Translations under genes and position numbers: made by a program
Notes under the pieces: generated by a model
What the model saw: only the letters and a program-made list of their open reading frames with translations
The model's database searches: none
Told to the model about the DNA's origin: nothing
Assembly: GCA_905234125.1 (NCBI GenBank)
Contig: CAJOGQ010000018.1
Coordinates: 1-52,707, forward strand
Source: an uncultured Bacteroidaceae bacterium
GTDB taxonomy: Bacteria > Bacteroidota > Bacteroidia > Bacteroidales > Bacteroidaceae
Length of the DNA: 52,707 bases
Direction of reading: 5' to 3'
In this document: piece by piece, positions 17,548 to 40,921 of the stretch
Position numbering within the stretch: the stretch's first letter is position 1
Layout: every line of letters starts with the position of its first letter

Positions 17548-19563
17548 ATGAAAAGAATTCTATTACTTTTACCATTGAGTTTTTCGTTTCTGCTTTCCTC
17601 GGCTCAGGTGGCCAGTGTGACCAGTCCTGACGGAAAGTTGAAGGTGAATGTGGACGTGAAGGGTGGAAAGCCCGTTTACGAAGTGATGTACGACGGCATG
17701 CAAGTGCTTGACGAAAGTCCTCTGGGCTTTGTGGCTGATCATGGCGACTTTTCCACTGGTGTGAGTTTCGGCAGCAAGAAGGAGGCGCATTTGGAGTACA
17801 ACTACGACCTCTCGCGCTCGAAGTTCAGTCAGGTGCATGTGGATGCCAATCAATTGGTGGTGACTTTGAAGAACGACAAGGGAATGCCTTTCGATGTAGA
17901 TTTCCGTGTGTCGAACAACGATGTGGCATTCCGTTATGCAATACCCAATCATCCCAGTCGTGCGAACGAGAAGAAATTCTCTGTGCGCATCATGAAGGAG
18001 GCTACAGGCTTTGACTTCCCCAGTCAGACCACTACGTTCCTCACCCCTCAGTCACATGCCATGATTGGCTGGAAGGGCACGAAGCCCAGCTACGAGGAGG
18101 GCTATGGCTATGATGAGCCTATGAACAAGAAGAGTGGCTACGGACATGGCTATACGTTCCCATGCCTTTTCCACACAGGAAATGCTTGGATTCTCGTTTC
18201 TGAGACAGGTGTGGACTCTCGCTATTGTGCCTCTCGTCTGTCTGACATGAAAGGCGATGGTCTCTATACTGTAGAGTTTCCGATGGCAGAGGAGAATAAT
18301 GGCAACGGCACTGTGGAACCAGCTTTCGCATTGCCTGGGGTGACCCCTTGGCGCACCATCACTGTCGGCACTTCGCTGAAGCCTATTGTGGAGACAACCG
18401 TTCCTTGGGACTATGTGACGCCTCGTTATGAGACTACACATCATTATAAATATGGTAAGGGCACGTGGAGTTGGATTGTGTGGCAGGACAATTCCATCAA
18501 CTACGACGATCAGGTGAAGTACATCCAGCTGTCAAAAGCGATGGGCTTCCAGTATGTGCTCATCGACAACTGGTGGGACACGAACATCGGCAAGGAGAAG
18601 ATGGAGCAGTTGGTGAAGTATGCCCAGAGTCAGGGTGTGGATGTGTTCCTGTGGTATAGTTCCAGCGGTTGGTGGAACGACATCGAGCAAGGTCCCATCA
18701 ATATCATGAGTGATCCCATCGCACGCAAGCAGGCCATGCGTTGGATGCAACAGTTGGGCGTGAAGGGCATCAAGGTCGATTTCTTTGGTGGCGACAAGCA
18801 GGAGACCATGCGTCTCTACGAGCAGATTCTCTCTGATGCTGACGATGCAGGCATCATGGTCATCTTCCATGGTTGCACGATTCCTCGTGGTTGGGAACGC
18901 ATGTATCCTAACTATGTGGGCAGCGAGGCTGTGTTGGCTTCAGAAAACATCTACTTCAGTCAAGGTGCAGCCGACAAGGAGGCGAAGGATGCCGCCACGC
19001 ACCCCTTCATCCGCAATGCCATTGGCTGTATGGAATTTGGTGGTTGCTTCATGAACCGTCACATCCATAAAGGTAATACAGGTGGCAACACACGTCGCAC
19101 GACCGACTGTCATGAACTCGCCACGTGTGTGCTTTTCCAGAATCCTATCCAGAACTTTGCCATCACCCCCGAGAACCTTCCAGCCGAAGCAACTCTCAAC
19201 GCTCAACTGTCAACTCTCAACTATAACGCCCCTGGTGCTCCCGCTCCTGCCATCAGCATGGATTTCTTGCGTGAGGTGCCCACCACATGGGACGAGACGG
19301 TCTTCATCGACGGCTATCCGGGCAAATATTGTGTGCTTGCCCGTCGTTGTGGAAACACTTGGTACATCGCTGGCAACAACGCCACAGGTGCGCCACTCAC
19401 GCTGAAACTCAATCTTCCGATGCTCCAGAAGGGCGACAAGCCTGTGCTCTATAGCGATAACCTTAAGGATCGTGAGCCTCAGAAGTCAGAGCTCAAGGTC
19501 AGCAACCCCAAGGCTGTCAGTGTGACGATGGCCGATCAGGGTGGATTCGTGATTGTGAAATAA
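17548..19563 (+). CDS. Secreted GH97 family glycoside hydrolase
   Basis: Alpha-glycosidase of family GH97 (SusB relatives). 671 residues with a signal peptide (MKRILLLLPLSFSFLLSS-AQ). The N-terminal beta-sandwich (VTSPDGKLKVNVDVKGGKPV, GFVADHGDFSTGVSF) is followed by the barrel (TWSWIVWQDNSINYDDQVKY, VLIDNWWDTNIGKEKMEQLV). GIKVDFFGGDKQE places an Asp at D411. In retaining GH97 enzymes of the BtGH97b type an Asp in this position is the nucleophile, which would favour alpha-galactosidase-like activity over SusB-type glucosidase; that is inference. Around residue 551 the sequence ATLNAQLSTLNYNA is encoded by a CTCAACTGTCAACTCTCAAC repeat and interrupts a conserved stretch. No SusC/SusD genes are nearby. 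Confidence 0.92.
   Translation: MKRILLLLPLSFSFLLSSAQVASVTSPDGKLKVNVDVKGGKPVYEVMYDGMQVLDESPLGFVADHGDFSTGVSFGSKKEAHLEYNYDLSRSKFSQVHVDANQLVVTLKNDKGMPFDVDFRVSNNDVAFRYAIPNHPSRANEKKFSVRIMKEATGFDFPSQTTTFLTPQSHAMIGWKGTKPSYEEGYGYDEPMNKKSGYGHGYTFPCLFHTGNAWILVSETGVDSRYCASRLSDMKGDGLYTVEFPMAEENNGNGTVEPAFALPGVTPWRTITVGTSLKPIVETTVPWDYVTPRYETTHHYKYGKGTWSWIVWQDNSINYDDQVKYIQLSKAMGFQYVLIDNWWDTNIGKEKMEQLVKYAQSQGVDVFLWYSSSGWWNDIEQGPINIMSDPIARKQAMRWMQQLGVKGIKVDFFGGDKQETMRLYEQILSDADDAGIMVIFHGCTIPRGWERMYPNYVGSEAVLASENIYFSQGAADKEAKDAATHPFIRNAIGCMEFGGCFMNRHIHKGNTGGNTRRTTDCHELATCVLFQNPIQNFAITPENLPAEATLNAQLSTLNYNAPGAPAPAISMDFLREVPTTWDETVFIDGYPGKYCVLARRCGNTWYIAGNNATGAPLTLKLNLPMLQKGDKPVLYSDNLKDREPQKSELKVSNPKAVSVTMADQGGFVIVK
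19191..19222 (-). repeat. GTTGAGA-family repeat inside the GH97 gene
   Basis: Plus-strand ACTCTCAACGCTCAACTGTC followed by AACTCTCAACT is translated in frame as TLNAQLSTLN. Confidence 0.75.
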
Positions 19564-19615
19564 TTTCTTAAACCAACATTTTAATAACCATCTCAATTAA
19601 AAACTATTTCAGAGT

Positions 19616-20668
19616 ATGAAAAAGAACTTTTTGATGCTTGCAGTGGCACTGATGTGCTTCTTTGCAGATGTGAATGCACAGTGTTGCTGTGGTAAAGGTA
19701 ATGGTGGCATGAAGCGCCAGCCTGTCAACATGATTCTCGATGCCGACTTCGGCAGTTCTACTGACGACCTCATCGCACTGATGATGCTGAACCACTACAT
19801 CGACCAGGGTCTAGTTGACCTCAAGGGTATCGTAGTGGATCGCGAAGGTGAGAACAATGCAGGTGTGGTGGACATCTTCAACACCTACTACGGACACCCC
19901 TATATCCCAGTGGGTCTGGAGCGTAATGGTGTGAAGAACCCACGTGTCTTCATCCCCTACAACGGCATTTGCGACCTGAAGGACGCACAGGGCAATCCAC
20001 TCTTTAAGCGCTCTTTCGATGCCAGCAAGTGCATGGACGGTTGGAAACTCTATCGCAAGATTCTCAGCAAGGCCGAGGACAAGTCCATCACGATTGTGGC
20101 CATTGGTTTTGCCACTTCACTCGCTCAGTTGATGGAATCAAAGCCAGACGAGTTCTCCAAGCTCAACGGCGTAGATCTTTTTGAGCAGAAGGTGAAGGCT
20201 GTGTATGTGCAGGCTGGTCGTTTCGAGGAAGAAGACAGCACCAGTGGTTACAACATGCGTGCCGCATCCAAGCAGGCTGCCATCTTCTACGACAAGCTCC
20301 CTCAGAGCGTAGAACTCATCATGTCGCCCAGCTATGTAGGTGAGAGCATGAACTACCTGCCCGAAGACGTGGTTGCCGACCTCTCTTGGACTGAGACCAA
20401 CCCCATCAAGGCTGTGTACACCAACTACACTTGCGACACAGGTCAGCGCATGTGGGACGTGAACTGCGTGACCAACGCTATCTTCGGCGATGGCCAGTTC
20501 AACATGTCTGCCCCAGGTTTCGTCACATTTGTTGACAAGGGTGAGGAATCTCTTATGCTCTTCAAGCAGGATCCTTACGGCAATGCTCGCTACCAACTTC
20601 CCTTCGACACTTACGGAAGCATGGAGAAGTTGATGGAGATGCGTCGCCACAACCGCATGAGAAAATAA
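19616..20668 (+). CDS. Secreted nucleoside hydrolase-like protein
   Basis: 350 residues with a signal peptide (residues 1-22, ending DVNA-Q) followed by a Cys-rich patch (QCCCGKGNGG). MILDADFGSSTDDLIALMML is a variant of the D-x-D-x-G-x-DD calcium site of inosine-uridine nucleoside hydrolases; ITIVAIGFATSLAQLM and the late MWDVNCVTNAIFG correspond to the TNxA- and HDP-type regions. The final Asp is present but the usual His is Trp-Asp. So it belongs to the fold, but nucleoside cleavage is not certain. It lies 52 bases after GH97 and ends 15 bases from the convergent aroB. Periplasmic salvage of nucleosides or a related N-glycoside is plausible. Confidence 0.8.
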   Translation: MKKNFLMLAVALMCFFADVNAQCCCGKGNGGMKRQPVNMILDADFGSSTDDLIALMMLNHYIDQGLVDLKGIVVDREGENNAGVVDIFNTYYGHPYIPVGLERNGVKNPRVFIPYNGICDLKDAQGNPLFKRSFDASKCMDGWKLYRKILSKAEDKSITIVAIGFATSLAQLMESKPDEFSKLNGVDLFEQKVKAVYVQAGRFEEEDSTSGYNMRAASKQAAIFYDKLPQSVELIMSPSYVGESMNYLPEDVVADLSWTETNPIKAVYTNYTCDTGQRMWDVNCVTNAIFGDGQFNMSAPGFVTFVDKGEESLMLFKQDPYGNARYQLPFDTYGSMEKLMEMRRHNRMRK

Positions 20669-20683
20669 ATTAGAATTGAAGAA

Positions 20684-21760
20684 TCAACTTTCCCTAAAGA
20701 AGTCCAACGCCTCGAAGATCTCCTCCTTCGAGGCGGTTTGGTTGATACGGATATCGCCAACACCCCCTAACAGCGTGAAGTTGATGATACCCGCTGTGTT
20801 TTTCTTGTCGTGGGTCATGTAGGCGTACAGTTCCTCGTAGTCATCGCAGGTGATGCCCAACGTGCCATAGTTCTCCCTGATGAAGCGAACCGTCTGACGC
20901 ATCTTGTCTGTTGGGAATCCCGTCTTGATGCAGGAGAGGTATAGTTCGCAGATGAGTCCCCAAGCCACAGCATAACCATGCAGAACAGGCTTGCGAGTCA
21001 ATGCCCAGCTCTCGAACGCATGTCCCACCGTGTGTCCAAGGTTCAAAGCCTTGCGGATGCCATGTTCCAAGGGGTCTTCCTCCACGATGCGTTCCTTGAT
21101 GGCGACACTCCTGCCCACCATCTGTCCCAAGTGCAGATAATCCACCTTATCCAAATCGAAGTTGAGAAGTTCGGCAAGACTATTTTCCTCTTGCTCCCTG
21201 CTCCCGGCTTCTTGCTCCTTGCTGATCAGTCCATGCTTCAGCATCTCTGCATATCCTGAGCAGATGTTCTCGTGGTCGAGCGTCTTCAAGAATTCCGTGT
21301 CAATAATCACCGTTTCAGGAGCATTGAACACGCCAATTTCGTTCTTCAGACCATTGAAATTGATGCCAGTCTTACCACCCACACTCGCATCCACCATGCT
21401 CAGCAGAGTGGTGGGCACATTGATGTATTTGATGCCTCGCTTGAACGTGCTGGCAGCGAATCCGCCAAGATCCGTCACCATGCCACCACCAAGGTTCACC
21501 ATCAGCGAGTGGCGGGTGCCACCTCCATTGCCCATTTCCGTCCACACCTTAGCCAACGTGTCCAACGTCTTGTGTGTGTCCGTCGCACCTATCATAATAT
21601 GTATAGCCTCTTTTAGGCAGGGGATGTCCTTCACCACAGGCAAGCACAACGCCTGTGTCGTCTCATCCATCAGGAGGAACAGTTTGTCGTGCTTCACCTC
21701 CTCCACAGCCTCCGTCAGTGTCTGTGCGATATTCGTCGAAATAACAACCTTGTTTGCCAT
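20684..21760 (-). CDS. aroB: 3-dehydroquinate synthase with a repeat-encoded loop
   Basis: Second step of the shikimate pathway. 358 residues. NLGGGMVTDLGGFAASTFKR binds NAD and substrate, DASVGGKTGIN follows, and NLGHTVGHAFESW carries metal-binding His residues; LHGYAVAWGL adds another. The sequence LISKEQEAGSREQEENSLAELL replaces what is normally a short turn between helices. The bases encoding it are the GGAGCAAG repeat found in spacers of this window, inserted in frame and adding about 12 residues. A Bacteroidetes-type -7 box (TACCTTCGC) sits at about 21,777-21,786. The bases at 20,711-20,734 (CCTCGAAG/CTTCGAGG) form a hairpin inside the 3' coding end that might also terminate the convergent upstream gene. 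Confidence 0.95.
   Translation of the reverse strand: MANKVVISTNIAQTLTEAVEEVKHDKLFLLMDETTQALCLPVVKDIPCLKEAIHIMIGATDTHKTLDTLAKVWTEMGNGGGTRHSLMVNLGGGMVTDLGGFAASTFKRGIKYINVPTTLLSMVDASVGGKTGINFNGLKNEIGVFNAPETVIIDTEFLKTLDHENICSGYAEMLKHGLISKEQEAGSREQEENSLAELLNFDLDKVDYLHLGQMVGRSVAIKERIVEEDPLEHGIRKALNLGHTVGHAFESWALTRKPVLHGYAVAWGLICELYLSCIKTGFPTDKMRQTVRFIRENYGTLGITCDDYEELYAYMTHDKKNTAGIINFTLLGGVGDIRINQTASKEEIFEALDFFRES
21186..21223 (+). repeat. GGAGCAAG-type repeat inside aroB
   Basis: CTTGCTCCCTGCTCCCGGCTTCTTGCTCCTTGC on the plus strand, in parts of under 20 bases identical to spacer repeats at 3048-3068; translated on the minus strand as KEQEAGSREQEE. Confidence 0.8.
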
Positions 21761-21846
21761 AATTCTTGAATTTGGGTGCGAAGGTAGTGAAAAAAAACGA
21801 GTCCGTAGGTGAAAAAACGAATAAAACCTTGATTTATCTGTTTTTT

Positions 21847-24069
21847 TCAGCTGATTGCACCCCAGTTGATATTGCTCTTGCGGAGTTCACGAAGTCTGCG
21901 CCAGAGGATGTCGTTCTGGGGATTGCGTTCTTCAGGGTCGAAAGTGATGACAGCTTGGGCAGTGTCGCGGGCGATGTTGAGGATTTGACCATCGCGAGCG
22001 AGATTGGCAATCTTGAGGTCGAAGGCCATGCCTGACTGTTGGGTTCCTTCGAGGTCACCTGGGCCACGGAGTTTGAGGTCTTGCTCAGCAATTTCAAAAC
22101 CATCGGTGGTATCGACCATCACCTGAATACGCTTGCGGGTGGTCTCGCCAATCTCGAACTTGGTAACGAGAACGCAGTAGCTCTGGTCTGCTCCACGCCC
22201 CACACGACCACGCAGCTGATGGAGCTGGCTGAGTCCGAAGCGTTCGGCATTCTCGATAATCATGACAGAGGCGTTGGGCACGTTCACACCCACTTCGATG
22301 ACGGTGGTGGAGACGAGGATATGGGTCTCGTGGCTGGCAAACCGCTGCATCTCGGCATCCTTGTCGGCTGGTTTCATCTTGCCATGCACCTTGCCCACCT
22401 TGTAGTTTGGGAAGGCCTTGTTGATTTCCTCAAAACCTGCTTCCAAGTCCTTCAAATCCATCTTCTCCGTTTCCTTAATGAGCGGATAGACAATATAGAT
22501 TTGACGGCCAAGTTGCAGTTCACGGTTCATGAGTTGGTAGATGCGCTGACGATGGGCATCGAACATGTGGACAGTGTGGATGGGTTTACGGCCAGGGGGC
22601 AGTTCATCAATGACGGACACGTCGAGGTCGCCATAGAGGGTCATGGCCAAGGTGCGAGGAATGGGGGTCGCCGTCATCACCAGAACGTGAGGCGGGACGC
22701 TGTTTTTCATCCAAAGTTTTGCCCTTTGTGCCACGCCAAAACGATGTTGCTCGTCGATGACCACGAGTCCCAACTTGTTGAACATCACGTTGTCCTCGAT
22801 GACGGCATGGGTACCCACGAGGATGTGGATGTCGCCCGTGACGAGCCCCTCGAACACGGCTGTCCGCTTCTTGCCCTTCACCGTTCCTGTAAGGAGTTCG
22901 ACCCTGACGGGCAGGTCGCCCAAGAGTTCACGCAGAGTGTCGAGATGCTGTTCGGCCAAAATTTCGGTAGGTGCCATGATGCAAGCCTGATAGCCGTTGT
23001 CGATGGCGATAAGTGCCACCATGAGCGCCACAAGGGTTTTGCCGCTGCCCACGTCACCTTGGAGGAGCCGATTCATCTGTCGCCCCGTCTTCATGTCTGC
23101 ACGAATTTCGCGGATGACTCGCTTCTGAGCCTCTGTGAGTTGGAAGGGCAAGTGGTTGTAGAAGAAGCCGTTGAAATGCTCACCGATGGTGTTGAAGACG
23201 ATGCCCTTGTAACGCAGTTGACGATCTTTCACATAGCGCAGGATGTTCAACTGCACATAGAAAAGCTCCTCGAATTTAAGTCGCAACTGTGCATGTCGCA
23301 AGGCATCGGGCGAGGTGGGATAATGGATGTTACGCACGGCATCGTCGTAGGACATCAGATGATGCTGTTGCACGATGTAAGGAGGCAAAGTCTCAGCCAA
23401 CGGCTCCTTGAGCAGCTTGAACATGTTGGCCGTCAGTTTGGCGATGGCAGAGGAGTTGAGCCCACTCCGCTTCATCTTCTCAGAGGTGTTGTAGGAAGGA
23501 CGGAAGACAGACCCTCCCCTCACCCTCCCTATAGGGAGGGGGTTGTTGCCTTGTTCATCAGCATTCTCATTAGCAGAGAAATCATTCCCTCCCTGCAGGG
23601 AGGGTGAGGGGAGGGTCTCTATCTCCGGATGCGCAATCTGAATCTTCCCATTGAACACCGTTGGTTTGCCAAAGACGACGTAGTCCTTGCGGCAGTCGTA
23701 GTTCTTCGTAACATACTTGATGCCCTGAAACCACACCAAGTCGATGCTTCCCGTACCATCGGAGAAATGGCCGATAAGCCGTTTGTTGCGTCCTTCGCCC
23801 ACGGTGTCGAATGAGAAGATCTGTCCGCACAGCTGCACGTAAGGCATTGCGCCGTCTATCTCACGAATCTGGTAGAAGCGGCTCCTGTCCACGTACTTGT
23901 AAGGATAATACGCTAACAGGTCGCCCACGGTCTTGATGCCGAGTTCGTTGGCGAGCAACAGAGCGCGATTCGGTCCCACTCCTTGCAGATACTTGATATC
24001 TTGGCTCAGTATGTTCACAATCCCATTCCGTTTGCATGGACGATGGCGCATCATCCACGAATTCGCCAC
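21847..24069 (-). CDS. recG: ATP-dependent DNA helicase RecG with a palindromic repeat insert
   Basis: Remodels stalled forks and Holliday junctions. Up to 740 residues. LQGVGPNRALLLANELGIKT and LLAYYPYKYVDRSRFYQI are the N-terminal wedge, LLQGDVGSGKTLVALMVALI is Walker A, LVVIDEQHRFGVAQRAKL is the DExQ box, and QLRGRVGRGADQSYCVLV is motif VI. Homology starts about residue 18, where a GTG at 24,018 could be the true start; the ATGs upstream add an unrelated RHRPCKRNG-like stretch. Between GKIQIAHPEIE and SYNTSEKMKRSGLNS lie about 40 extra residues (TLPSPSLQGGNDFSANENAD and so on) encoded by a composite palindrome at 23,509-23,618. The gene ends near the aroB promoter. Confidence 0.95.
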   Translation of the reverse strand: MANSWMMRHRPCKRNGIVNILSQDIKYLQGVGPNRALLLANELGIKTVGDLLAYYPYKYVDRSRFYQIREIDGAMPYVQLCGQIFSFDTVGEGRNKRLIGHFSDGTGSIDLVWFQGIKYVTKNYDCRKDYVVFGKPTVFNGKIQIAHPEIETLPSPSLQGGNDFSANENADEQGNNPLPIGRVRGGSVFRPSYNTSEKMKRSGLNSSAIAKLTANMFKLLKEPLAETLPPYIVQQHHLMSYDDAVRNIHYPTSPDALRHAQLRLKFEELFYVQLNILRYVKDRQLRYKGIVFNTIGEHFNGFFYNHLPFQLTEAQKRVIREIRADMKTGRQMNRLLQGDVGSGKTLVALMVALIAIDNGYQACIMAPTEILAEQHLDTLRELLGDLPVRVELLTGTVKGKKRTAVFEGLVTGDIHILVGTHAVIEDNVMFNKLGLVVIDEQHRFGVAQRAKLWMKNSVPPHVLVMTATPIPRTLAMTLYGDLDVSVIDELPPGRKPIHTVHMFDAHRQRIYQLMNRELQLGRQIYIVYPLIKETEKMDLKDLEAGFEEINKAFPNYKVGKVHGKMKPADKDAEMQRFASHETHILVSTTVIEVGVNVPNASVMIIENAERFGLSQLHQLRGRVGRGADQSYCVLVTKFEIGETTRKRIQVMVDTTDGFEIAEQDLKLRGPGDLEGTQQSGMAFDLKIANLARDGQILNIARDTAQAVITFDPEERNPQNDILWRRLRELRKSNINWGAIS
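23509..23618. repeat. Composite palindromic element inside recG
   Basis: A 22-bp perfect inverted repeat (AGACCCTCCCCTCACCCTCC plus CT, 23,509-23,530; complement at 23,597-23,618) encloses two 18-bp perfect palindromes: CCCTCCCTATAGGGAGGG (23,523-23,540) and CCCTCCCTGCAGGGAGGG (23,587-23,604). The whole is in frame. Confidence 0.9.
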
Positions 24070-27369: not shown

Positions 27370-28290
27370 TCACTTAATCGCTTCCTTCACCCCACTTATG
27401 TGGCTGCGGGAAACGGGGATGGATTCGTGGCAATGTTTGATGATGAGTTGCATGGTGCCGGAGTGAGAGACGATTTGCTCCACCTGGCCGAGGTTGACGA
27501 GAAAGGCACGGTGGCAACGGACAATCATGGGATAGGCATGCAGGTCGTCCTCCATCTGCTTGGAGGTGGCGCGGAGCATGTCAGAGCGCACTTGGCCGTC
27601 GTGCAGTTGATAAACTTTCACATAGTTGCCGACTGCCTCTATATATAAAAGATGAGAGATGTCGAGGGTGATGGACTCGCTGGTGGTGCCAGTGAGGGTG
27701 ACAGATTCCCCAAGCCTCTCCGAAAGAGGAGATTTCTGTCCATCGGAGGAGGCGAGCGCTTCTGCATTTTCGCCTTTTGACGGGATTGCGGAGGTCTCTT
27801 CCTGCATCCTTTTCAGTTGCTCGTTCAGCAGTTTGGTTTCCCTTAGTTCTGTAGCTAAATAGCGGCTGCGGAACTTGAAGCGCCAGTAGAGGCCGACGGC
27901 GAAGGAGCAGAAAGCAACAATGAGCAAAGTCTCGAAGAAGTTGCTCCATGAGAGCAGGTTGCCCGCCACCCGATCGTTCAGCATGAAGTGGCGATAGAGA
28001 CAAATCATCAGGGAAATCAGCGGAGTGTTGATAATCTGGAACCAAAGATTGCGTCGGATGATGTAGTCAACGCCTCGATCGAGCGAACCCGGTTTGCGCA
28101 GGATATACTTCAGGATGGCGTCTGTCAGCATGCAGATGCCGATGCCCATCGCCCACACGACCAACAGATGCACGTATGCCTGCCACTGCCAGGCTTCGAG
28201 TCCGAAGGGCTTGAACACCGCCAATGCCACCACCACAAACGTGGTGCTGAACACACGGATCATGATCGTTGTTTTGATGCCTTTGTTCAT
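27370..28290 (-). CDS. Membrane-bound LytTR transcriptional regulator
   Basis: 306 residues from the ATG at 28,290 (MNKGIKTTIMIRV). Four hydrophobic segments (VFSTTFVVVALAVFKPFGLE, AYVHLLVVWAMGIGICML, IINTPLISLMICLYRHF, FFETLLIVAFCSFAVGLYW) are followed by a short coiled coil and a C-terminal LytTR DNA-binding domain (ISHLLYIEAVGNYVKVYQL, LRATSKQMEDDL, MIVRCHRAFLVNLGQVEQI). The layout is common in Bacteroidetes. Between the coiled coil and LytTR lies GQKSPLSERLGESVTL, encoded by a CCTCT...AGAGG palindromic repeat. A start 21 codons upstream is rejected because the promoter -7 box lies within it. The mRNA would have almost no leader. Confidence 0.87.
   Translation of the reverse strand: MNKGIKTTIMIRVFSTTFVVVALAVFKPFGLEAWQWQAYVHLLVVWAMGIGICMLTDAILKYILRKPGSLDRGVDYIIRRNLWFQIINTPLISLMICLYRHFMLNDRVAGNLLSWSNFFETLLIVAFCSFAVGLYWRFKFRSRYLATELRETKLLNEQLKRMQEETSAIPSKGENAEALASSDGQKSPLSERLGESVTLTGTTSESITLDISHLLYIEAVGNYVKVYQLHDGQVRSDMLRATSKQMEDDLHAYPMIVRCHRAFLVNLGQVEQIVSHSGTMQLIIKHCHESIPVSRSHISGVKEAIK
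27706..27737. repeat. CCTCTccgaaAGAGG palindrome inside the LytTR gene
   Basis: CCCCAAGCCTCTCCGAAAGA then GGAGATTTCTG. The core matches the palindrome at 372-390 and resembles AAGTCTCCCGCGAAAGAGGG at 7334-7353. Confidence 0.6.
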
Positions 28291-28297
28291 ACGGTCG

Positions 28298-28306
28298 GCA
28301 AAGGTA
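28298..28306 (-). promoter_or_regulatory. Promoter -7 box of the LytTR gene
   Basis: TACCTTTGC on the minus strand ends 8 bases before the ATG at 28,290, leaving a leader of only a few bases. Confidence 0.7.
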
Positions 28307-28407
28307 CGAATAAAATGTGAAAAAACACTGCCATTCATCCCATTTTCTGCCATTCATCCCACAAAATCTGTCAGTCGTCACAAACGCAGGCCGTATATCC
28401 CAGATAT

Positions 28408-31075: not shown

Positions 31076-32038
31076 TTACACAAAAAATGCGTTTTCACCT
31101 AACTTTAGGCCTCTCAACAGGTCTTCTACGGGCATTTTTTTCTTTCCTTCAAGCTGTAGCACCTTTATATTGAGCCATCCGTCGGCTGTGGCAACACGAA
31201 GAATATTCTTTCCGTCAGAGCATAGCTCCCCAACCTCACCCCCTTGGGGGAACGGGGAACCAGGGAGAGGGTCTGCTTCATATATCTTGACCGATTTGCC
31301 CTCCAATGTTGTCCATGCGGCAGGGTAAGGGGAAAGGCCGCGTATGAAGTCATACACTTTCTTGGTGGGTTGGTTCCAATCAATGCGACAAGTCTCACGG
31401 AAAATTTTGGGAGCTGGGGTGAGGGGAATGTCCTTGAACTGGTCCTGAGGAATGGATGTGACGGTACCTGCGATGATGTTATCCACCGTTTCTGTGACCA
31501 ACTGTCCGCTCAATACCATCAGCTTGTCGTGTACATCACCTACGTTGTCTGTGTCGGCAATGGGAATACGAACTTGCTGGATGATGTCGCCTGTGTCAAT
31601 CTCATGTTTGAGGAAGAAGGTGGTGATGCCTGTTTCAGTCTCGCCATTGATGACAGCCCAGTTGATGGGAGCCGCACCCCGATACTTGGGCAGGAGGCTG
31701 GCATGGGCATTGAAAGTGCCGAGTGGGGGCATGCTCCACACGACCTCTGGCAACATACGGAACGCGACCACAATCTGAAGGTCTGCTTTCAGTTGACGTA
31801 GCTCCTCCACGAAAGCCGGGTCTTTGAGCTTCTCTGGTTGCAAGACTTTCAGACCGTGTTCAACGGCATATTGCTTGACTGGACTGGGTTGGAGCACGCT
31901 GCCGTGGCGCCCCATGGGTTTATCGGGCATGGTGATGACGGCCACTACGTTGTAGCCACCTTCGACTAAAGCACGTAGGCTCTCGACAGCAAAGTCGGGC
32001 GTACCCATATATACGATTCGTAAATCTTCTTTTGTCAT
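31076..32038 (-). CDS. fmt: Methionyl-tRNA formyltransferase with a repeat-encoded loop
   Basis: Formylates Met-tRNA for translation initiation. 320 residues from the ATG at 32,038 (MTKEDLRIVYMGTPDFAVES); seven codons further upstream come from an AAATGAGAAA repeat. Catalytic residues lie in FNAHASLLPKYRGAAPINWA (Asn, His) and the Asp follows in FFLKHEIDTGDIIQQ. The C-terminal domain begins near PYPAAWTTLEGKSVKIYEA, and then DPLPGSPFPQGGEVGELC interrupts the usual strand turn before SDGKNILRVATADG. It is encoded by CCTCACCCCCTTGGGGGAAC-type palindromic DNA (31,231-31,275). The downstream ClC gene is separated by an AAATGATA array. Confidence 0.95.
   Translation of the reverse strand: MTKEDLRIVYMGTPDFAVESLRALVEGGYNVVAVITMPDKPMGRHGSVLQPSPVKQYAVEHGLKVLQPEKLKDPAFVEELRQLKADLQIVVAFRMLPEVVWSMPPLGTFNAHASLLPKYRGAAPINWAVINGETETGITTFFLKHEIDTGDIIQQVRIPIADTDNVGDVHDKLMVLSGQLVTETVDNIIAGTVTSIPQDQFKDIPLTPAPKIFRETCRIDWNQPTKKVYDFIRGLSPYPAAWTTLEGKSVKIYEADPLPGSPFPQGGEVGELCSDGKNILRVATADGWLNIKVLQLEGKKKMPVEDLLRGLKLGENAFFV
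31231..31275. repeat. Palindromic G/C-rich repeat inside fmt
   Basis: Contains CCCCCTTGGGGG (palindrome) followed by GGGGAACCAGGGAGAGGGTC; translated as DPLPGSPFPQGGEVG. Confidence 0.75.
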
Positions 32039-32039
32039 T

Positions 32040-32112
32040 TTCTTTTTCTCATTTCTCATTTATCATTTGTCATTTCTCATTTATCATTTGTCATTTATCA
32101 TTTAGCGCAGCG
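32040..32112 (-). repeat. AAATGATA-type array with GCGCTGCGC head, between ClC and fmt
   Basis: Minus strand: GCGCTGCGCTAAATGATAAA and then ATGACAAATG units. Head at 32,101-32,112, just after the ClC stop; tail reaches the fmt start. Members of the same family: 34,499-34,538, 36,150-36,193, 36,563-36,597, 37,486-37,516, 38,085-38,112 and 38,873-38,917. Confidence 0.8.
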
Positions 32113-34498: not shown

Positions 34499-34538
34499 CT
34501 ATGATAAATGATAAATGATAAATGATAAATGATAAATC
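34499..34538 (+). repeat. AAATGATA array upstream of sua5
   Basis: Plus strand: GCGCTATGATAAATGATAAA repeated to 34,538, about five 8-base units. Opposite orientation to the array at 32,040. Confidence 0.8.

Positions 34539-36149: not shown

Positions 36150-36152
<3 letters not shown>
34557..36152 (-). CDS. prfC: Peptide chain release factor 3
   Basis: GTPase that recycles RF1/RF2 after termination. 531 residues, standard length. [20 protein letters not shown] is the P-loop, [15 protein letters not shown] is switch [21 protein letters not shown] is G3, and [20 protein letters not shown] is G4. Domain II and the C-terminal domain follow ([37 protein letters not shown]), matching RF3. It is a single gene flanked by two AAATGATA arrays. 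Confidence 0.96.
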
Positions 36153-36193
<41 letters not shown>

Positions 36194-36194
36194 G

Positions 36195-36554: not shown

Positions 36555-36562
36555 GACCTACG

Positions 36563-36597
36563 TTTATCATTTTTCATTTCTCATTTATCATTTAGAA
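36563..36597 (-). repeat. AAATGATA array with a hairpin head in the 3' end of rfbD
   Basis: Minus strand: the palindrome GAAGTTTGTGTGCACAAACT-TC (36,594-36,615) is followed by TAAATGATAAATGAGAAATG. The palindrome encodes the last residues of RfbD and the array provides the stop. Confidence 0.75.
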
Positions 36598-37465
36598 GTT
36601 TGTGCACACAAACTTCGAGCGAGTCTTCCCAATATGGAACCTCAATGCCATAAGTGCGCTTGATCTTCGTCTTGTCCAATACCGAATAGTGAGGTCTATT
36701 TGCGGGGGTGGGGTACTCTTCCGTGTGGAGCGGACGCACATGACAAGTGGTGATGCCTGCGAGGCGGTGTATCGCCTTCGTAAAGTCGTACCATGAAATC
36801 ACCCCTTCGTTGCTGAAATGATAGATGCCAGGCACGATGCCCTTGTTGATGGCCACGAAGATGACCGTCGCTAAGTCTCTTGCGTATGTGGGGGTACCCA
36901 CTTGGTCGAAGATGACACCCAACTCTGGCTTCTCCTTGCCCAAACGTATCATCGTCTTCACGAAGTTGTTGCCAAAGGTGGAGTAGAGCCAAGCTGTGCG
37001 AATGATGAGGTAGTTCTGGCAGTTTGCCTTCACGCTCTCTTCACCTTCCAACTTTGTGCGTCCATACACAGAATTGGGACACGTAGGCAGTTCCTCCGTC
37101 ATGGGTTTGTAGTTGGTGCCGTCAAAAACATAGTCTGTGCTGATCTGCACCATACTTCCACCTCGTTTTCCCACTGCTTTGGCCAAATAGCCAGGGGCGA
37201 TGTTATTAAGCAGATTGCAGAAGTCCTCATTGCTCTCTGCCTTGTCCACAGCCGTGAATGCAGCGCAGTTCACGATGCAGTCAATCTTGTTCTCCTCCAC
37301 GAAAGCCTCCACTTCAGCCTCGTTGGTGATGTCTAATTTCTGTGCCACAGAGCCTTCTGGGATGACGACATCCGTAAAGAAGTACTCATGCTGCGGGTTG
37401 TCCTTTGCCTGCAACTGCATCTCATTGCCGAGTTGCCCGTTGCATCCTGTTACTAAAATTCTCAT
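36581..37465 (-). CDS. rfbD: dTDP-4-dehydrorhamnose reductase
   Basis: Final step of dTDP-L-rhamnose synthesis (NADPH-dependent). 294 residues, short-chain dehydrogenase fold: ILVTGCNGQLGNEMQLQAKD binds the cofactor, CIVNCAAFTAVDKAESNEDF follows, and YGRTKLEGE carries the catalytic YxxxK. VQISTDYVFDGTNYKPMTEE supplies the Thr. C-terminal region: VISWYDFTKAIHRLAGITTC. The other rfb genes (A, B, C) are not in the window. The last residues VCVHKLLNDK are encoded by the hairpin head and start of an AAATGATA array, so the native tail may have been altered. The start is preceded by a poly-A/T stretch with AAAAAGGAATAG. Confidence 0.94.
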   Translation of the reverse strand: MRILVTGCNGQLGNEMQLQAKDNPQHEYFFTDVVIPEGSVAQKLDITNEAEVEAFVEENKIDCIVNCAAFTAVDKAESNEDFCNLLNNIAPGYLAKAVGKRGGSMVQISTDYVFDGTNYKPMTEELPTCPNSVYGRTKLEGEESVKANCQNYLIIRTAWLYSTFGNNFVKTMIRLGKEKPELGVIFDQVGTPTYARDLATVIFVAINKGIVPGIYHFSNEGVISWYDFTKAIHRLAGITTCHVRPLHTEEYPTPANRPHYSVLDKTKIKRTYGIEVPYWEDSLEVCVHKLLNDK

Positions 37466-37485
37466 ATTTAACTATTCCTTTTTTA

Positions 37486-37516
37486 TTATTTCTCATTTCT
37501 CATTTAGGCGCAGCCG
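37486..37516 (-). repeat. AAATGAGA array after the DUF4924 stop
   Basis: Minus strand: GCGGCTGCGCCTAAATGAGA then AATGAGAAATAATAAAA. Same head (GC-rich) and tail layout as at 32,040. Confidence 0.7.
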
Positions 37517-37517
37517 C

Positions 37518-38063
37518 TTAAAACTCCACCTCCCCCTCTTTGTCCTTCTGATAGTAGTCGCTCAACATACCGATGAACTTGGCAATATGGTCGATGGCTG
37601 TTGCTGTCTCTGCAGATATCTCCTTCTTCTGTGCTCTCAGCAGCATCACTCCATACAGTGCATCAAAGCAATTCTCTATCTCTCCCTTCTCTTGACTCTC
37701 CGGACTTTTTGCCCTCAACTCTACGATGAATGGTAAGGCTTTGTAGTACGATGCCGAATAGAAAGGATGTTTGCTCGATTTCAGCAACTGTGCATGCAAG
37801 TCGTTCAGGATAATCAAGATGTTCTTGTTCACTTGCAGATGCCCTTTCTTTGTCACCCCCTCCTCTCTCATCATTTGTATCAGGTTCTCATACCATCCTT
37901 TCAGTTCTTCGCTCTTTTCGGCATCGAGACCAAACATGGGGATATACTCCCTTTCCATCCTCTCCACATCCAAATCGTAGGCACGCAATGTGTCTTCCAC
38001 CTGCCACATGTACAGCAGATATTCTGCCACATTCTTCTTCTTCAGTTGTTCTGCTATATACAT
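37518..38063 (-). CDS. DUF4924 family protein
   Basis: 181 residues from the ATG at 38,063 (MYIAEQLKKKNVAEYLLYMW), chosen because AAAGAGG lies six bases upstream; seven more codons are open further up. All-helical, cytosolic, no membrane segment. VEDTLRAYDLDVERMEREYI, LHAQLLKSSKHPFYSASYYK and ALPFIVELRAKS are typical of this Bacteroidales family of unknown function. It sits between a LysE-type transporter (49 bases upstream) and rfbD; the layout suggests cotranscription but not shared function. Confidence 0.86.
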   Translation of the reverse strand: MYIAEQLKKKNVAEYLLYMWQVEDTLRAYDLDVERMEREYIPMFGLDAEKSEELKGWYENLIQMMREEGVTKKGHLQVNKNILIILNDLHAQLLKSSKHPFYSASYYKALPFIVELRAKSPESQEKGEIENCFDALYGVMLLRAQKKEISAETATAIDHIAKFIGMLSDYYQKDKEGEVEF

Positions 38064-38084
38064 CGCCTCTTTCCCATTTATCAT

Positions 38085-38112
38085 TTATCATTTTTATCAT
38101 TTCTCATTTAGC
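38085..38112 (-). repeat. AAATGATA array after the LysE stop
   Basis: Minus strand: GCGTGACGCTTAGCTAAATG then AGAAATGATAAAAATGATAA. The head encodes the last residues of the LysE protein. Confidence 0.7.
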
Positions 38113-38861
38113 TAAGCGTCACGCAGCGCCCCTCCTCCAAACGGTATGTAATGGAAGGTATGTCCTGTCAGGGCATACACAATCATGATGGCACTCACCA
38201 CCATCACGGTAATGCCGATGATGCGGTTGATGCGCCACAGCACCTGATGGCTGAATCGAGCCCTCACCTTGTCCACAATCCACGTTAAGCCAAACCACCA
38301 TGCCAGTGCGCCCACAACGATGAAGATGTAACCCACGGTCTGCACAATCCAGTTGCCGGCCAAAATAAAGGTGAACTGGCCGAACAAGGCCACGAACAGC
38401 AGGATAATCAATGGGTTGGACACCGTAATGATGAAGCCAGAGATGATGAAGCCGTTCAGTCGGTTCTTCGTCTCCACAGGCGAGGCTCTATCCACCACCT
38501 TTTGCTTGGGGATGCTCCTGAAGGTGTACACACCAAAGGCGAACAACAATACAGAGCCTATCACCTTGATCCATAAGGCGATGGTGGCATCCTCGATGAT
38601 GTCCACCACCAGATACATGAAGTAACCCGTGATGATGGCATAGAGGATGTCGCTGATGCTCGCACCGATGCCTGTGGCAAATCCTTCCCAACGTCCCTTG
38701 TTCAGGGTGCGTTGCACTGTCAGGATGCCCACTGGCCCCATAGGTGCAGAGGCCAACACGCCAATCAGAAAACCTTTCATCATTTCCTCAAACACACCCA
38801 CATCCTTCATCCATTCCTGGAAGTTCAGTTCGGGTATTTGAGGTATTGCTTGTAATATCAT
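38112..38861 (-). CDS. LysE family translocator
   Basis: Inner-membrane exporter of the LysE/RhtB family, which expels amino acids or related compounds. 249 residues. After about 25 soluble residues (LQAIPQIPELNFQEWMKDVG) come six hydrophobic segments, starting with FLIGVLASAPMGPVGILTVQ, where GP(V)GP-like Pro/Gly motifs are a family hallmark, then ATGIGASISDILYAIITGYF. The 25-residue lead may be extra: an alternative start is MMKGFLIGV. The substrate cannot be inferred. It is flanked by AAATGATA arrays on both sides. Confidence 0.85.
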   Translation of the reverse strand: MILQAIPQIPELNFQEWMKDVGVFEEMMKGFLIGVLASAPMGPVGILTVQRTLNKGRWEGFATGIGASISDILYAIITGYFMYLVVDIIEDATIALWIKVIGSVLLFAFGVYTFRSIPKQKVVDRASPVETKNRLNGFIISGFIITVSNPLIILLFVALFGQFTFILAGNWIVQTVGYIFIVVGALAWWFGLTWIVDKVRARFSHQVLWRINRIIGITVMVVSAIMIVYALTGHTFHYIPFGGGALRDA

Positions 38862-38872
38862 TCTTTACTCCT

Positions 38873-38917
38873 CATTTTTCATTTATCATTTATCATTTCT
38901 CATTTAGCGAAGCGCCT
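38873..38917 (-). repeat. AAATGATA array between the esterase and LysE genes
   Basis: Minus strand: GGCGCTTCGCTAAATGAGAA and ATGATAAATGATAAATGAAA. It begins at the esterase stop. Confidence 0.75.
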
Positions 38918-39786
38918 CATTTAGGGCTCTGCCCGCCTATCGTCTCTAACCACGCACTCAAATCATTCATCATCTCCTTGTGATATCTAAAGTTCTCCCT
39001 GATTCCCCAGCCGTGTCCACCAGAAGGGTAGATGCACATGGTGGCTTTGATGCCACACTTCTTCAATGCCAAGTAGTAGTTCACGCTGTTCTGCGATGGC
39101 ACCACACGGTCATCGTCGCTCAGCAACATGATGGCAGGAGGTGTCTGACGGGTCACCTGCAGTTCGTTGCTGTAGAGGTCGGCCATCTCCTGCGAGGCCT
39201 CTTCGCCAATCAGTCCATGACGGCTACCCTTGTGGGTGTACTGGTAGTTGAAGGTGACGACGGGATAGAACAGGATTTGGAAAGCTGGCACCGTGAGCGA
39301 GTCGCTGTGGGTGGCAACGGTTGTGGCCAGATGTCCACCTGCCGATGAACCCATGATACCCACCTTCTTGGGGTTGATGTTCCATTTCTGCGCATTCTCC
39401 CTCACCACTCTGAGTGCTTCCTTCGCATCGCTAATGGGTACATCGGGATTGGCATGTGGCATACGATACTTCAGCACAATCAACGCTATGCCTCGTTCGT
39501 TGAAGAAAGGTGCCCAGTCATACCCCTCATGTCCTGTGGCCAGATGGGTGTAGCCACCGCCAGGACAGCAAACCACGGCCAGTCCTGTGGCTTTCGAAGC
39601 CTCAGGCAGGAACACACGGATGGAGGGTTTGAAGTTCTGCTTCGAATCGTCAAACGGCCGGGTCTTGTCGATGCCGTTGCTGTTGGGCAGACCTTCTGGC
39701 CATAGGTCGATGTCGAAGGCCGGCTGTTGTGCCCGGACAGAGAGCAAACTGAGAATGCTGAACATAAAAAGGGCTATCTTTTTCAT
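38917..39786 (-). CDS. Secreted alpha/beta-hydrolase, acetyl-esterase-like
   Basis: 289 residues with a signal peptide (MKKIALFMFSILSLLSVRA-Q). VVCCPGGGYTHLATGHEGYD is the oxyanion region (HGGG-like CPGGGY), GIMGSSAGGHLATTVATHSD holds the nucleophile Ser in GSSAG, SDDDRVVPSQNSVNYYLALK carries the Asp and YPSGGHGWG the His. The relatives I recognise (BD-FAE, AXE1-like) deacetylate plant polysaccharides, which fits a gut or rumen Prevotella; the actual substrate is not determined. The gene has its own divergent promoter shared with the ROK kinase region. Confidence 0.88.
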   Translation of the reverse strand: MKKIALFMFSILSLLSVRAQQPAFDIDLWPEGLPNSNGIDKTRPFDDSKQNFKPSIRVFLPEASKATGLAVVCCPGGGYTHLATGHEGYDWAPFFNERGIALIVLKYRMPHANPDVPISDAKEALRVVRENAQKWNINPKKVGIMGSSAGGHLATTVATHSDSLTVPAFQILFYPVVTFNYQYTHKGSRHGLIGEEASQEMADLYSNELQVTRQTPPAIMLLSDDDRVVPSQNSVNYYLALKKCGIKATMCIYPSGGHGWGIRENFRYHKEMMNDLSAWLETIGGQSPK

Positions 39787-39815
39787 CTTTTCTGATGTTA
39801 TGTGATAAAATATTT

Positions 39816-39857
39816 TGCAAAGGTAAGGAAAATAAGTGAAAAATCCCTATCTTTGCC
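39816..39857. promoter_or_regulatory. Divergent promoters of the esterase (minus) and ROK kinase (plus) genes
   Basis: Minus strand -7 box TACCTTTGCA at 39,825-39,816; plus strand TATCTTTGCC at 39,848-39,857. Confidence 0.7.
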
Positions 39858-39887
39858 GATAAATCGTAAATACAAACAAAAGAAAAC

Positions 39888-39911
39888 AAATTGTAAATTG
39901 TAAATTGTTAA
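39888..39911 (+). repeat. AATTGTAA array at the ROK kinase translation start
   Basis: AAATTGTAAATTGTAAATTG in the leader, directly before the ATG. The same unit fills the spacers at 43,711-43,739 and 45,806-45,839. Confidence 0.7.
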
Positions 39912-39919
39912 ATAGATTT

Positions 39920-40921
39920 ATGGATACACAAAAGCCTTATGTGATAGGTGTGGACCTCGGAGGTACCAACACCGTTTTTGGAATCGTCGATGCCCGTGGT
40001 GACATTGTGGCACAGGACTCCATCAAGACACAAGCCTACAAGACTGCCGACGCATTTGTTGAGGCAGGTGTGGAATGTCTCAAACCGCTGATTGCACAAG
40101 TAGGGGGTCTCGACAAGATTGCCGGCATGGGCATCGGAGCTCCCAATGCCAACTACTACACAGGAGCCATCGAGTATGCGCCTAACCTCTCGTGGGCACA
40201 TGACGGGGTGGTGCCACTCGCCCAGATGTTCTCCGACCGTCTCTCAACTCTTGCTCCTTGCTCCTCGCCCCTTGCTCCGCTAAAAGTTCGCATCACCAAC
40301 GATGCCAATGCCGCTGCGATGGGCGAGATGACCTATGGAGTGGCTCGTGGTATGAAAAATTTCATCGTCATCACTCTTGGCACAGGCGTGGGGTCTGGTA
40401 TCGTCATCAATGGTCAGTTGGTCTATGGTCATGACGGTTTTGCTGGTGAACTGGGGCATGTGAAGGTGGATCATAGCGCTAATGCACGATTGTGTGGCTG
40501 CGGACGGCATGGCTGTCTTGAGGCATATTGCTCTGCCACGGGTATGGCTCGTACGGCTCGTGAGATGCTGCAACTGAGCGAACAGCCTTCTTTGTTGCGC
40601 GAGAAGAACCCCGACGACATCGAGTCGATTGATGTCTTTCTGGCGGCACAGCAGGGCGACGAAATGGCGAAAGGAATCTTTAACTATACGGGTTTCACTT
40701 TGGGTGAGGCATGTGCAGACTTTGCTGCCTTTTCTTCGCCCGAAGCATTCATCTTTTTCGGAGGGCTTTGCAAGGCGGGTGACCTCATCATGAAGCCCAT
40801 AGAGGAAGCTTACAACCGGTCTGTCATGCCCATCTTCCGTGGCAAGGCCAAGTTCCTTGTCAGTTCGCTGATGAACGCCAACGCCGCTGTCCTTGGTGCT
40901 TCTGCCTTGGCTTGGGAGTGA
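39920..40921 (+). CDS. ROK family sugar kinase (glucokinase-like) with a repeat-encoded loop
   Basis: 333 residues from the ATG at 39,920; a TTG five codons earlier is rejected. VIGVDLGGTNTVFGIVDARG is the ATP-phosphate site, GIGAPNANYYTGAIEYAPNL the sugar site, TLGTGVGSGIVINGQLVYG follows, and GELGHVKVDHSANARLCGCG with RHGCLEAYCSATG is the ROK zinc site. It most likely phosphorylates glucose. Between PLAQMFSD and VRITNDANAAAMGEM lie about 14 extra residues (RLSTLAPCSSPLAPLK), encoded by CTCAACTCTTGCTCCTTGCT and so on, a join of the GTTGAGA and GGAGCAAG repeat families, where relatives have a short strand. Confidence 0.92.
   Translation: MDTQKPYVIGVDLGGTNTVFGIVDARGDIVAQDSIKTQAYKTADAFVEAGVECLKPLIAQVGGLDKIAGMGIGAPNANYYTGAIEYAPNLSWAHDGVVPLAQMFSDRLSTLAPCSSPLAPLKVRITNDANAAAMGEMTYGVARGMKNFIVITLGTGVGSGIVINGQLVYGHDGFAGELGHVKVDHSANARLCGCGRHGCLEAYCSATGMARTAREMLQLSEQPSLLREKNPDDIESIDVFLAAQQGDEMAKGIFNYTGFTLGEACADFAAFSSPEAFIFFGGLCKAGDLIMKPIEEAYNRSVMPIFRGKAKFLVSSLMNANAAVLGASALAWE
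40240..40285 (+). repeat. Compound repeat inside the ROK kinase gene
   Basis: CTCTCAACTCTTGCTCCTTG then CTCCTCGCCCCTTGCTCCGC. It matches, in sequence and order, the right arm of the repeat at 3048-3075. Confidence 0.75.

What the first reader, a model, noticed from the sequence alone, without database searches (positions are those of the whole stretch)
19191..40285. Dispersed spacer repeats are translated in frame inside conserved housekeeping proteins
The short repeats that fill spacers in this window also lie inside the reading frames of aroB (21,186-21,223), recG (23,509-23,618), fmt (31,231-31,275), a ROK kinase (40,240-40,285), a GH97 enzyme (19,191-19,222) and a LytTR regulator (27,706-27,737). 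In each case they give a short, low-complexity, in-frame peptide between recognisable conserved motifs. At least four unrelated repeat families do this. In-frame palindromic elements of this kind are known from Rickettsia, and short G/C-rich inserts encoding PLP..P.GG peptides occur in some Bacteroidetes, but several families acting together in one stretch of this density points to a general mechanism (element insertion tolerated at surface loops, or a maturation or mobilisation activity) that may not be described.
Basis: partly seen in the sequence, partly recalled or inferred. Interest (0 to 1): 0.8.

Follow-up and report, generated by a model that had tools for sequence, protein, structure and literature searches.

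The report
Roaming repeats inside essential protein loops
In an uncultured group of gut bacteria, short repetitive DNA elements that mostly sit between genes have also landed, in frame, in loops of essential enzymes, with sister species carrying different unrelated elements at the same spot; this resembles a phenomenon known from Rickettsia.

Summary
Four of six sites (aroB, recG, ROK, GH97) hold dispersed repeats read in frame; the fmt and LytTR stretches have no second copy in the genome. The spacer repeats are mostly tandem arrays of 7-nt units, about 1 array per kb of spacer and 0.044 per kb of coding DNA. Another 400 kb of the genome gave 15 more intragenic arrays, in TrpE, CydB, HypD, CbiET, AcrB and others. 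Homologs show lineage-specific insertion. In sister species one loop is empty, or carries a TCAACT array, a GGAGCAA array, or one of several palindromes (RecG, Mfd, CTP synthase, ROK, MtaB, RlmB-like). In one relative, 15 of 15 complete GC-rich palindromes examined lie in ORFs of 198 aa or more, 14 in one frame, with lengths stepping by 12 nt. Heptamer arrays are often inverted arms of hairpins. Best explanation: non-autonomous elements spread through the genome, and selection keeps only stop-free, frame-keeping copies in flexible loops. How they move is unknown. Closest known: Rickettsia palindromic elements and heptanucleotide repeats, of which one case inside a Bacteroidetes gene is in print. 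New, within the papers searched: unrelated families converging on the same loops, and the scale.

The parts
21186..21223 (-). GGAGCAA-type heptamer array inside aroB (gene 20684-21760 -), read as EAGSREQEEN
   Evidence: NCBIfam TIGR01357 aroB over cut-off
23509..23618 (-). composite GC-rich palindrome (two inverted arms) inside recG (gene 21847-24069 -), read as ETLPSPSLQGG...PLPIGRVRGGS; takes the place of a linker that is 43 aa in 18 of 30 homologs
40240..40285 (+). TCAACTC + TTGCTCC heptamers inside a ROK-family protein (gene 39905-40921 +), read as LSTLAPCSSPLAPL; coil 110-122 between helix 100-109 and strand 123-127 of the model
19190..19222 (+). TCAACTN heptamer array inside a GH97 enzyme (gene 17548-19563 +), read as LNAQLSTLNYN
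31231..31275 (-). G/C-rich stretch in fmt (gene 31076-32059 -), read as PLPGSPFPQGGEVGEL; loop varies among relatives but no other copy in the genome
27706..27737 (-). short inverted repeat in a LytTR-domain protein (gene 27370-28353 -); variable linker, no other copy in the genome
2970..3070 (.). intergenic hairpin element: GGAGCAA heptamer arm, core, inverted TTGCTCC arm; core also in L154 and in G000:C51 (L011/L012)
10315..10412 (.). intergenic hairpin element with inverted AAAAGAG/AAAAGTG heptamer arms
46500..46606 (.). intergenic inverted pair of AATTAGG heptamer arrays; the same spacer in G032/G035 has other units
4771..4874 (.). AGTTGAN array, intergenic by my gene calls
6051..6126 (.). 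AGTTGAN array that begins at the stop codon of gene 5267-6052; absent in G032 and G035, the two relatives compared
12115..12160 (.). AGTTGAN array overlapping the 3' end of gene 10989-12134
13015..13109 (.). TCAACTN/CTAAACT array (intergenic)
32045..32104 (.). TCATTTN array upstream of fmt, reaching into its longest-ORF start; a TCATTT array at this place also in G037, none in G022, G043, G018, G035 or G032
34501..34537 (.). AAATGAT array (intergenic); also in G037, not in the six other relatives compared

Best explanation
Several unrelated non-autonomous repeat elements are copied around the genomes of this uncultured Bacteroidaceae/Prevotellaceae gut genus. They include heptamer arrays (many of them the inverted arms of small hairpin elements) and GC-rich palindromes. 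Most heptamer arrays sit in spacers. A copy in a gene survives only if it is stop-free in its orientation, leaves a length that keeps the frame, and lies in a flexible loop or linker. For a 7-nt array with enough units the entry frame does not matter, because 7 is not a multiple of 3 and all three frames give the same cyclic heptapeptide (TCAACTC gives STLNSQL). The same permissive loops are therefore filled again and again by different elements in sister species, and old native linkers can be replaced. The peptides need no function. SHOWN: lineage-specificity, in-frame reading in conserved proteins, dispersal, alternation of families at one site, depletion of heptamer arrays in coding DNA, inverted arms. 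INFERRED: that copies move between loci rather than arise in place, that selection does the filtering, that the peptides are made and stay in the protein. UNKNOWN: the enzyme or repair process that moves them.
For: Empty loops in relatives: aroB (none of 29 other aligned homologs has the insert); ROK loop 10-11 aa in 78 of 92 distinct homologs against 15-26 aa with heptamers or remnants in 13 and a palindrome in 1 (the 78 include L396, whose loop match was mis-cut and which I set to empty by hand). Same loop, different element: CTP synthase, Mfd, GT2, RlmB-like, MtaB, MutS2 and UvrA, that is 7 of the 10 GC-element sites that had a comparator (DNA); RecG linker with a GC palindrome (G000), a different GC-rich insert (G022) and a degenerate palindrome (G036, both by eye), and TCAACT-like arrays with 12-13 of 14 lag-7 matches in G018, G020 and G039; LytTR response regulator with TCAACT in G000 and GGAGCAA in G022. 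Spacers turn over in the same way. Density 0.996/kb intergenic against 0.044/kb in CDS; TCAACT family inside genes 10 of 10 in the stop-free orientation, 7 of 7 in the stop-bearing one at gene edges. G031: 15 of 15 complete GC elements found in the 30 held of 45 arm matches lie in ORFs of 198 aa or more, 14 of 15 in one frame, core lengths 100 (8), 112 (5), 124 (1), 99 (1). Inverted arms: 9 of 23 neighbouring array pairs against 5% of random pairs. The empty sites of TrpE, CydB, aroB and ROK show no copy of the unit (by eye).
Against: No target-site duplication, excision footprint or mobilising gene was found. At two of the empty sites (HypD in G018, TonB in G022) a native CAACT lies beside the insertion point, which in-place slippage or microhomology could use. 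Two of the six window sites are not dispersed repeats. Some loops called repeat-derived are too degenerate to prove it (ROK L133, L134, L384, L385: 6-8 of 14 lag-7 matches). No expression or protein data. The stop-free orientation inside genes is partly forced by how genes are called. The AroB model is poor, so loop position rests on the ROK model and on alignment gaps.
Confidence: 0.78

Rival explanations
1. The heptamer arrays arise in place by polymerase slippage on short native sequences, with no movement between loci.
For: Heptanucleotide repeats are the commonest class of long simple repeats in most of the genomes surveyed and slippage has been proposed for them (Mrazek 2007 as told in PMC4679880). 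Unit number varies among loci. A native CAACT lies beside the insertion point at two of the empty sites looked at (HypD G018, TonB G022).
Against: The same few units recur at unrelated loci and in unrelated genes; one loop carries different units in different species; the empty sites of TrpE, CydB, aroB and ROK show no unit (by eye); hairpins with a shared core recur. It does not explain the palindromes. Slippage may still change copy number.
Confidence: 0.12
2. The loops were long in the ancestor and the short loops are deletions.
For: Some sites are filled in many relatives (HypD loop in 7 of 11 genomes).
Against: All 43 rows of the ROK-tree clade that holds Prevotella and Xylanibacter have short loops; different unrelated sequences at one site cannot come from one ancestor.
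Confidence: 0.04
3. The inserts are selected for a function of the peptide or of the mRNA hairpin (for example regulation of translation).
For: Long hairpins; hosts include several DNA-repair proteins (RecG, Mfd, UvrA, MutS2), a bias also remarked on for REPs (PMC3733652, passages).
Against: Inserts at a given site are absent or of another family in other species, and occur in many unrelated proteins. Host-class enrichment was not tested.
Confidence: 0.05
4. The elements are skipped by the ribosome or removed from RNA, like mobile bypassing elements or introns (recalled, no call).
For: Stable hairpins inside essential genes.
Against: The 15 complete copies examined are stop-free in the host frame, and 14 of them share one frame with lengths stepping by 12 nt, which bypassing would not require.
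Confidence: 0.02
5. Assembly or binning artefact of draft genomes.
For: The genus genomes are drafts of 40-380 contigs.
Against: Inserts at the same places recur in separately assembled species, in frame in the alignments made.
Confidence: 0.02

Closest known systems
Rickettsia palindromic elements (RPE), Ogata et al. 2000/2002 (known here only through passages of PMC10969869 and PMC3733652)
   Same: Palindromic elements of about 150 bp in several families, many inserted in frame in ORFs of unrelated conserved proteins, encoding a conserved peptide.
   Different: Here a Bacteroidota gut lineage; the elements include tandem heptamer arrays as well as palindromes; unrelated families alternate at the same loop in sister species. 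Sequence kinship with RPE was not tested.
Heptanucleotide tandem repeats: TAACTGA repeats of Beggiatoaceae, cyanobacteria and five Bacteroidetes (MacGregor 2015, PMC4679880); cyanobacterial STRR
   Same: 7-nt units, mainly in spacers, sporadic among related genomes, one orientation translatable (LSVISYQ there, STLNSQL here), some copies in ORFs, including one near the end of PurC in a Bacteroidetes species.
   Different: Other units; several families per genome; copies lie inside conserved housekeeping enzymes, whereas there they are mostly at protein ends or in hypothetical proteins; here many arrays are inverted arms of hairpins.
REP/BIME elements and RAYT transposases (PMC3733652, passages)
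   Same: Short palindromes often paired in inverted orientation; some copies in ORFs, repair genes among them.
   Different: No Y1 transposase match in this genome; the complete GC elements examined in G031 are all intragenic.
MITEs
   Same: Small, inverted-repeat, non-autonomous, dispersed.
   Different: No target duplication or parent transposase established.

Membership tests
Rickettsia palindromic elements | palindromic element inserted in frame within conserved ORFs, same frame in most copies | tested here: met
   15 of 15 complete copies (in the 30 held of 45 arm matches) in ORFs, 14 of 15 in one frame; hairpin z -8.5 for the recG copy
Rickettsia palindromic elements | sequence homology to described RPE families | not tested
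   no RPE sequence was fetched
Heptanucleotide tandem repeats (LSSR/STRR type) | dispersed tandem arrays of 7-nt units, mainly intergenic | tested here: met
TAACTGA repeat family | unit TAACTGA | tested here: not met
   the consensus list of the 96 arrays holds no rotation or complement of TAACTGA
REP elements mobilised by RAYT | REP-associated Y1 tyrosine transposase in the genome | tested here: not met
   no PF01797 match in G000 (84% complete), nor in G041 or G043; G031, richest in the GC element, has one (29.9 bits, cut-off 23)
MITE | terminal inverted repeats | tested here: met
   for hairpin elements; not for solo TCAACT arrays
MITE | target-site duplication and parent transposase | tested here: inconclusive
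   one search shows no clean duplication at heptamer sites; GC-element ends were compared at protein level only

The most novel reading that the evidence does not exclude
Being translatable has become a selected property of the elements themselves. The GC palindrome keeps one open frame and steps in length by 12 nt, and heptamer arrays are frame-indifferent by arithmetic, so these families can use permissive loops of essential proteins as safe harbours that purifying selection protects from deletion. Several unrelated families would have converged on this life style in one lineage, making selfish DNA a main source of new protein loops.
Probability: 0.3. Interest if true: 0.85.

Novelty: new variant of a known kind. 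Interest (0 to 1): 0.68.

Why it matters
It shows in-frame selfish-looking DNA outside Rickettsia, from several unrelated families at once, in gut bacteria whose many sequenced species allow gains and losses to be dated. About a third of the distinct protein indels of 4 aa or more between this window and seven relatives (5 of about 15, my merging by eye of the 33 rows) are made of such repeats, so they could be a major source of loop variation. The natural replicates (one loop, many different inserts) are a ready map of insertion-tolerant sites in essential enzymes such as CTP synthase, Mfd and TrpE.

Tried and rejected
Y1/RAYT transposase as mover: absent in G000, and by eye not tied to element number over the genus. 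fmt and LytTR inserts as members of dispersed families: not supported. Pure hairpin explanation for fmt: not supported. AroB structure: model too poor to place the loop. The search tool's reversed-pattern control is no control for TCAACT, because TCAACT is its own mirror image. A chance reading of inverted array pairs is unlikely, but neighbouring pairs are not fully independent. Gene names changed on checking: what I first called PflB is trans-4-hydroxy-L-proline dehydratase (HypD), and 'TrmH' scores best as RlmB but below cut-off. An enzyme that adds heptamers (for example reverse-transcriptase templated) was considered and not tested. Whether repair genes are over-represented among hosts was not tested.
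Full report
SETTING. The window is contig C18 of a draft genome (2.695 Mb, 107 contigs, 84% complete). Relatives matched by the ROK gene are uncultured Bacteroidaceae/Prevotellaceae genomes, mostly from ruminant and other animal guts (record titles).

THE SPACER REPEATS. At a strict threshold the window has 13 tandem arrays of period 7, none at periods 4-6, 8 and 10, one at 9, and none at period 7 in 20 shuffles (arrays at 14, 21 and 28 are multiples of 7). Main units are TCAACTN, TCATTTN, GGAGCAA/TTGCTCC, AAAAGTG and AATTAGG. In 452,707 bp (window plus the first 20 kb of 20 other contigs, not a random sample) a gene caller of my own gave 338 genes, 85.6% coding, and 96 arrays: 65 intergenic, 14 at gene edges, 17 inside genes (one further 'inside' row is a run of N). 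Density is 0.996 per kb of spacer and 0.044 per kb of CDS. Repeats of periods 6, 9, 12 and 15, which keep the frame, number 10, 17, 14 and 15 inside CDS, against 1-3 for periods 5, 8, 10 and 11. The exact pattern TCAACTNTCAACTNTCAACT occurs in 26 of 45 genus genomes, from 0 to 220 hits, overlapping within arrays, and in 38 of 295 sampled genomes of the order. In the G000 sample the free position is C 28, G 26, A 11, T 0, while for example all 10 listed hits of G290 have T, as expected if arrays spread within each genome.

INSIDE GENES. Besides GH97 and ROK, arrays lie in TrpE, DsbD, trans-4-hydroxy-L-proline dehydratase (HypD), a regulator with propeller and HTH domains, CydB, an outer-membrane efflux protein, an AcrB-type pump, a LytTR response regulator, a histidine kinase, a flippase, a TonB receptor, CbiET, a VapE-like protein (two arrays), and one N-terminus not named. 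All 10 TCAACT-family arrays inside genes are in the stop-free orientation; at gene edges 7 of 7 are in the stop-bearing one, and 13 of 14 edge arrays are at 3' ends. A heptamer array of enough units reads as the same cyclic heptapeptide in every frame (arithmetic).

INSERTIONS, NOT CONSERVED LOOPS. aroB: the 10-aa insert is in none of the other 29 homologs aligned (loci were held for 30 of 42 genomes with a match). ROK: 110 loci gave 92 distinct proteins; 78 have the short loop (77 by the script, plus L396, whose match was mis-cut and set by hand), 13 have 15-26 aa with heptamers or remnants, and one has a 66-aa palindrome-bearing loop. Four of the 13 (L133, L134, L384, L385) are too degenerate to prove origin. 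The tree needs at least 5 gains or losses (starred branches force 2), and the TTGCTCC array of G037 lies in a 4-row clade (100/95) whose other loops I labelled TCAACT-like. One search compares 13 G000 proteins with up to 10 relatives: for example the TrpE loop is empty in 4 of 10, has TCAACT in G000, long other inserts in G037 and G043, and intermediate lengths in the rest; the CbiET loop has QLSTLNSQLST-like peptides in G000, G035, G032, G043 and G030, an AATTCCT/GGAATGA element in G018, is empty in G012, G022 and G020, and is different in G044 and G037. For OEP and AcrB only one homolog was found. In 120 ortholog pairs of window genes (4 with a stop codon in the matched stretch) there are 33 indels of 4 aa or more, which I merge by eye to about 15 sites, 4 made of heptamers (11 or more of 14 lag-7 matches) and one of the GC palindrome.

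THE GC-RICH PALINDROME. Two inverted arms around a variable core. In G031, 45 arm matches were found and loci held for the first 30. These hold 15 complete elements, all in ORFs of at least 198 aa; 14 are read in one frame (mostly QTLPSPSLQGG...GRVRGGS) and one (CobQ) in another; core lengths 100 (8), 112 (5), 124 (1), 99 (1). Hosts named by NCBIfam over cut-off: CTP synthase, ArgS, MutS2, MtaB, CobQ, and MnmA in G000 (N-terminal part-copy); Mfd, UvrA and UbiE as best but below cut-off, on truncated ORFs. Unpaired arms were not assessed, so the 15 of 15 speaks for complete copies only. If coding density is like that of G000 (86%), it shows lack of avoidance rather than preference; the one-frame bias is the stronger fact.

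ONE LOOP, MANY ELEMENTS. I prepared 11 sites (9 of the 15 G031 elements, and UbiE and UvrA of G000). Flank-only queries were run for 8 of them in 10 genomes; the second Mfd site, GT2 and RNase H were compared only through loci that happened to overlap, and not every match had its DNA held. Ten sites had a comparator, and 7 of the 10 carry a different insert in another species (DNA). CTP synthase: GC palindrome in G031, a second palindrome (TAATGGGGAG...CTCCCCATTA) in G030 and G012, a third in G043, short in G000, G007, G022, G037, G041 and G044. Mfd: GC palindrome in G031 and G041, TCAACT array in G000, GGAATGA/TCATTCC hairpin in G030, another palindrome in G012, short or nearly so in G022, G037, G043 and G044. 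GT2: GC palindrome in G031, TCAACT array in G000. RlmB-like: GC palindrome in G031, TCAACT array in G030. No different insert was seen for ArgS, UbiE or the second Mfd site (one comparator); RNase H had none. The RecG linker (43 aa in 18 of 30 homologs) is replaced by the GC palindrome in G000, a different GC-rich insert in G022, a degenerate palindrome in G036, and partly by TCAACT-like arrays in G018, G020 and G039. So elements also replace native linkers.

WHAT THE HEPTAMER ARRAYS ARE. At a looser threshold 129 arrays form 23 neighbour pairs within 250 bp; 9 share inverted 8-mers and 1 shares direct ones, against 5.1% and 6.4% of random pairs (binomial 9.5e-7). The 9 pairs enclose 29-189 nt and those folded form hairpins. 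One core recurs at window 3000, in L154 and in G000:C51; another motif (ACCTTTAGCTCG...) occurs in the G030 inserts of Mfd and the RlmB-like gene and in loci of other genomes. Many arrays are therefore arms of mobile-looking hairpins, although of the inverted pairs only one is of TCAACT arrays. In synteny the spacers differ from species to species.

STRUCTURE. The ROK model (mean pLDDT 78) has the insert as a coil between a helix and a strand, and matches ROK kinases in the PDB. Against solved anthranilate synthases the alignment opens gaps at the TrpE insert; against 3-dehydroquinate synthase the profile, which leaves the insert out, has a one-residue gap close by. The AroB model is poor.

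MECHANISM. The empty sites of TrpE, CydB, aroB and ROK show no copy of the unit; those of HypD (G018) and TonB (G022) have a native CAACT beside the insertion point (by eye). Unrelated loci share units and cores, and one site holds different families; copying between loci followed by selection fits best. Slippage may set copy number and could seed some arrays. No mover was found.

LITERATURE. MacGregor 2015 (PMC4679880: abstract, passages, sections 9, 12 and 15) describes TAACTGA repeats, their translation in one orientation, ORF copies mainly at protein ends, and one set near the end of PurC in the Bacteroidetes species F. litoralis. PMC4692102 (passages) on G-rich heptamers; PMC10969869 and PMC3733652 (passages) on Rickettsia elements and REPs in ORFs. 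Ten full-text searches listed no paper whose title or abstract start describes several repeat families in frame at the same loops in Bacteroidota; PMC5771137, on repeats in Porphyromonas gingivalis, was listed and not opened. The library holds only open-licence papers, so this is weak evidence of absence.

VERDICT. A real phenomenon, wider than the finding claimed, with two of its six examples unproven. It works like Rickettsia palindromic elements, adding heptamer elements and convergence of families on the same loops.

Noticed in passing
window 6048-6128, 12113-12164 and 12 other arrays: Arrays at gene edges are nearly all at 3' ends (13 of 14); the AGTTGAN orientation supplies or abuts the stop codon, so repeats may set C-termini.
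   Followed up: partly
window 32045-32104: The start codon of the longest fmt ORF lies inside a TCATTT/AAATGA array, whose units contain overlapping ATG and TGA; true starts may be misjudged there.
   Followed up: no
RecG (window 21847-24069), UvrA (L001), Mfd and MutS2 (G031): Several hosts are DNA-repair proteins, a bias that PMC3733652 also remarks on for REPs; enrichment not tested.
   Followed up: no
window 42026-42096 and 42150-42203: Tandem repeats of 11 nt (TTCCTTCGTTG; AACCGTACATC), a period otherwise rare here.
   Followed up: no
window 46500-46606 versus G032/G035 (L194, L190): The spacer holds heptamer-like arms on both sides in all three genomes but with different units, as if the hairpin were kept while the unit changes (by eye).
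   Followed up: partly
TCAACT arrays, all genomes: TCAACT is a mirror palindrome, and the seventh base is free with a genome-specific preference (no T in the G000 sample, T only in the listed G290 hits).
   Followed up: partly
L140:891-923: An AAGTGAA-type array in a VapE-like gene stays open although its unit holds TGA; one unit reads AAGGGAA, which may be what keeps the frame open.
   Followed up: no
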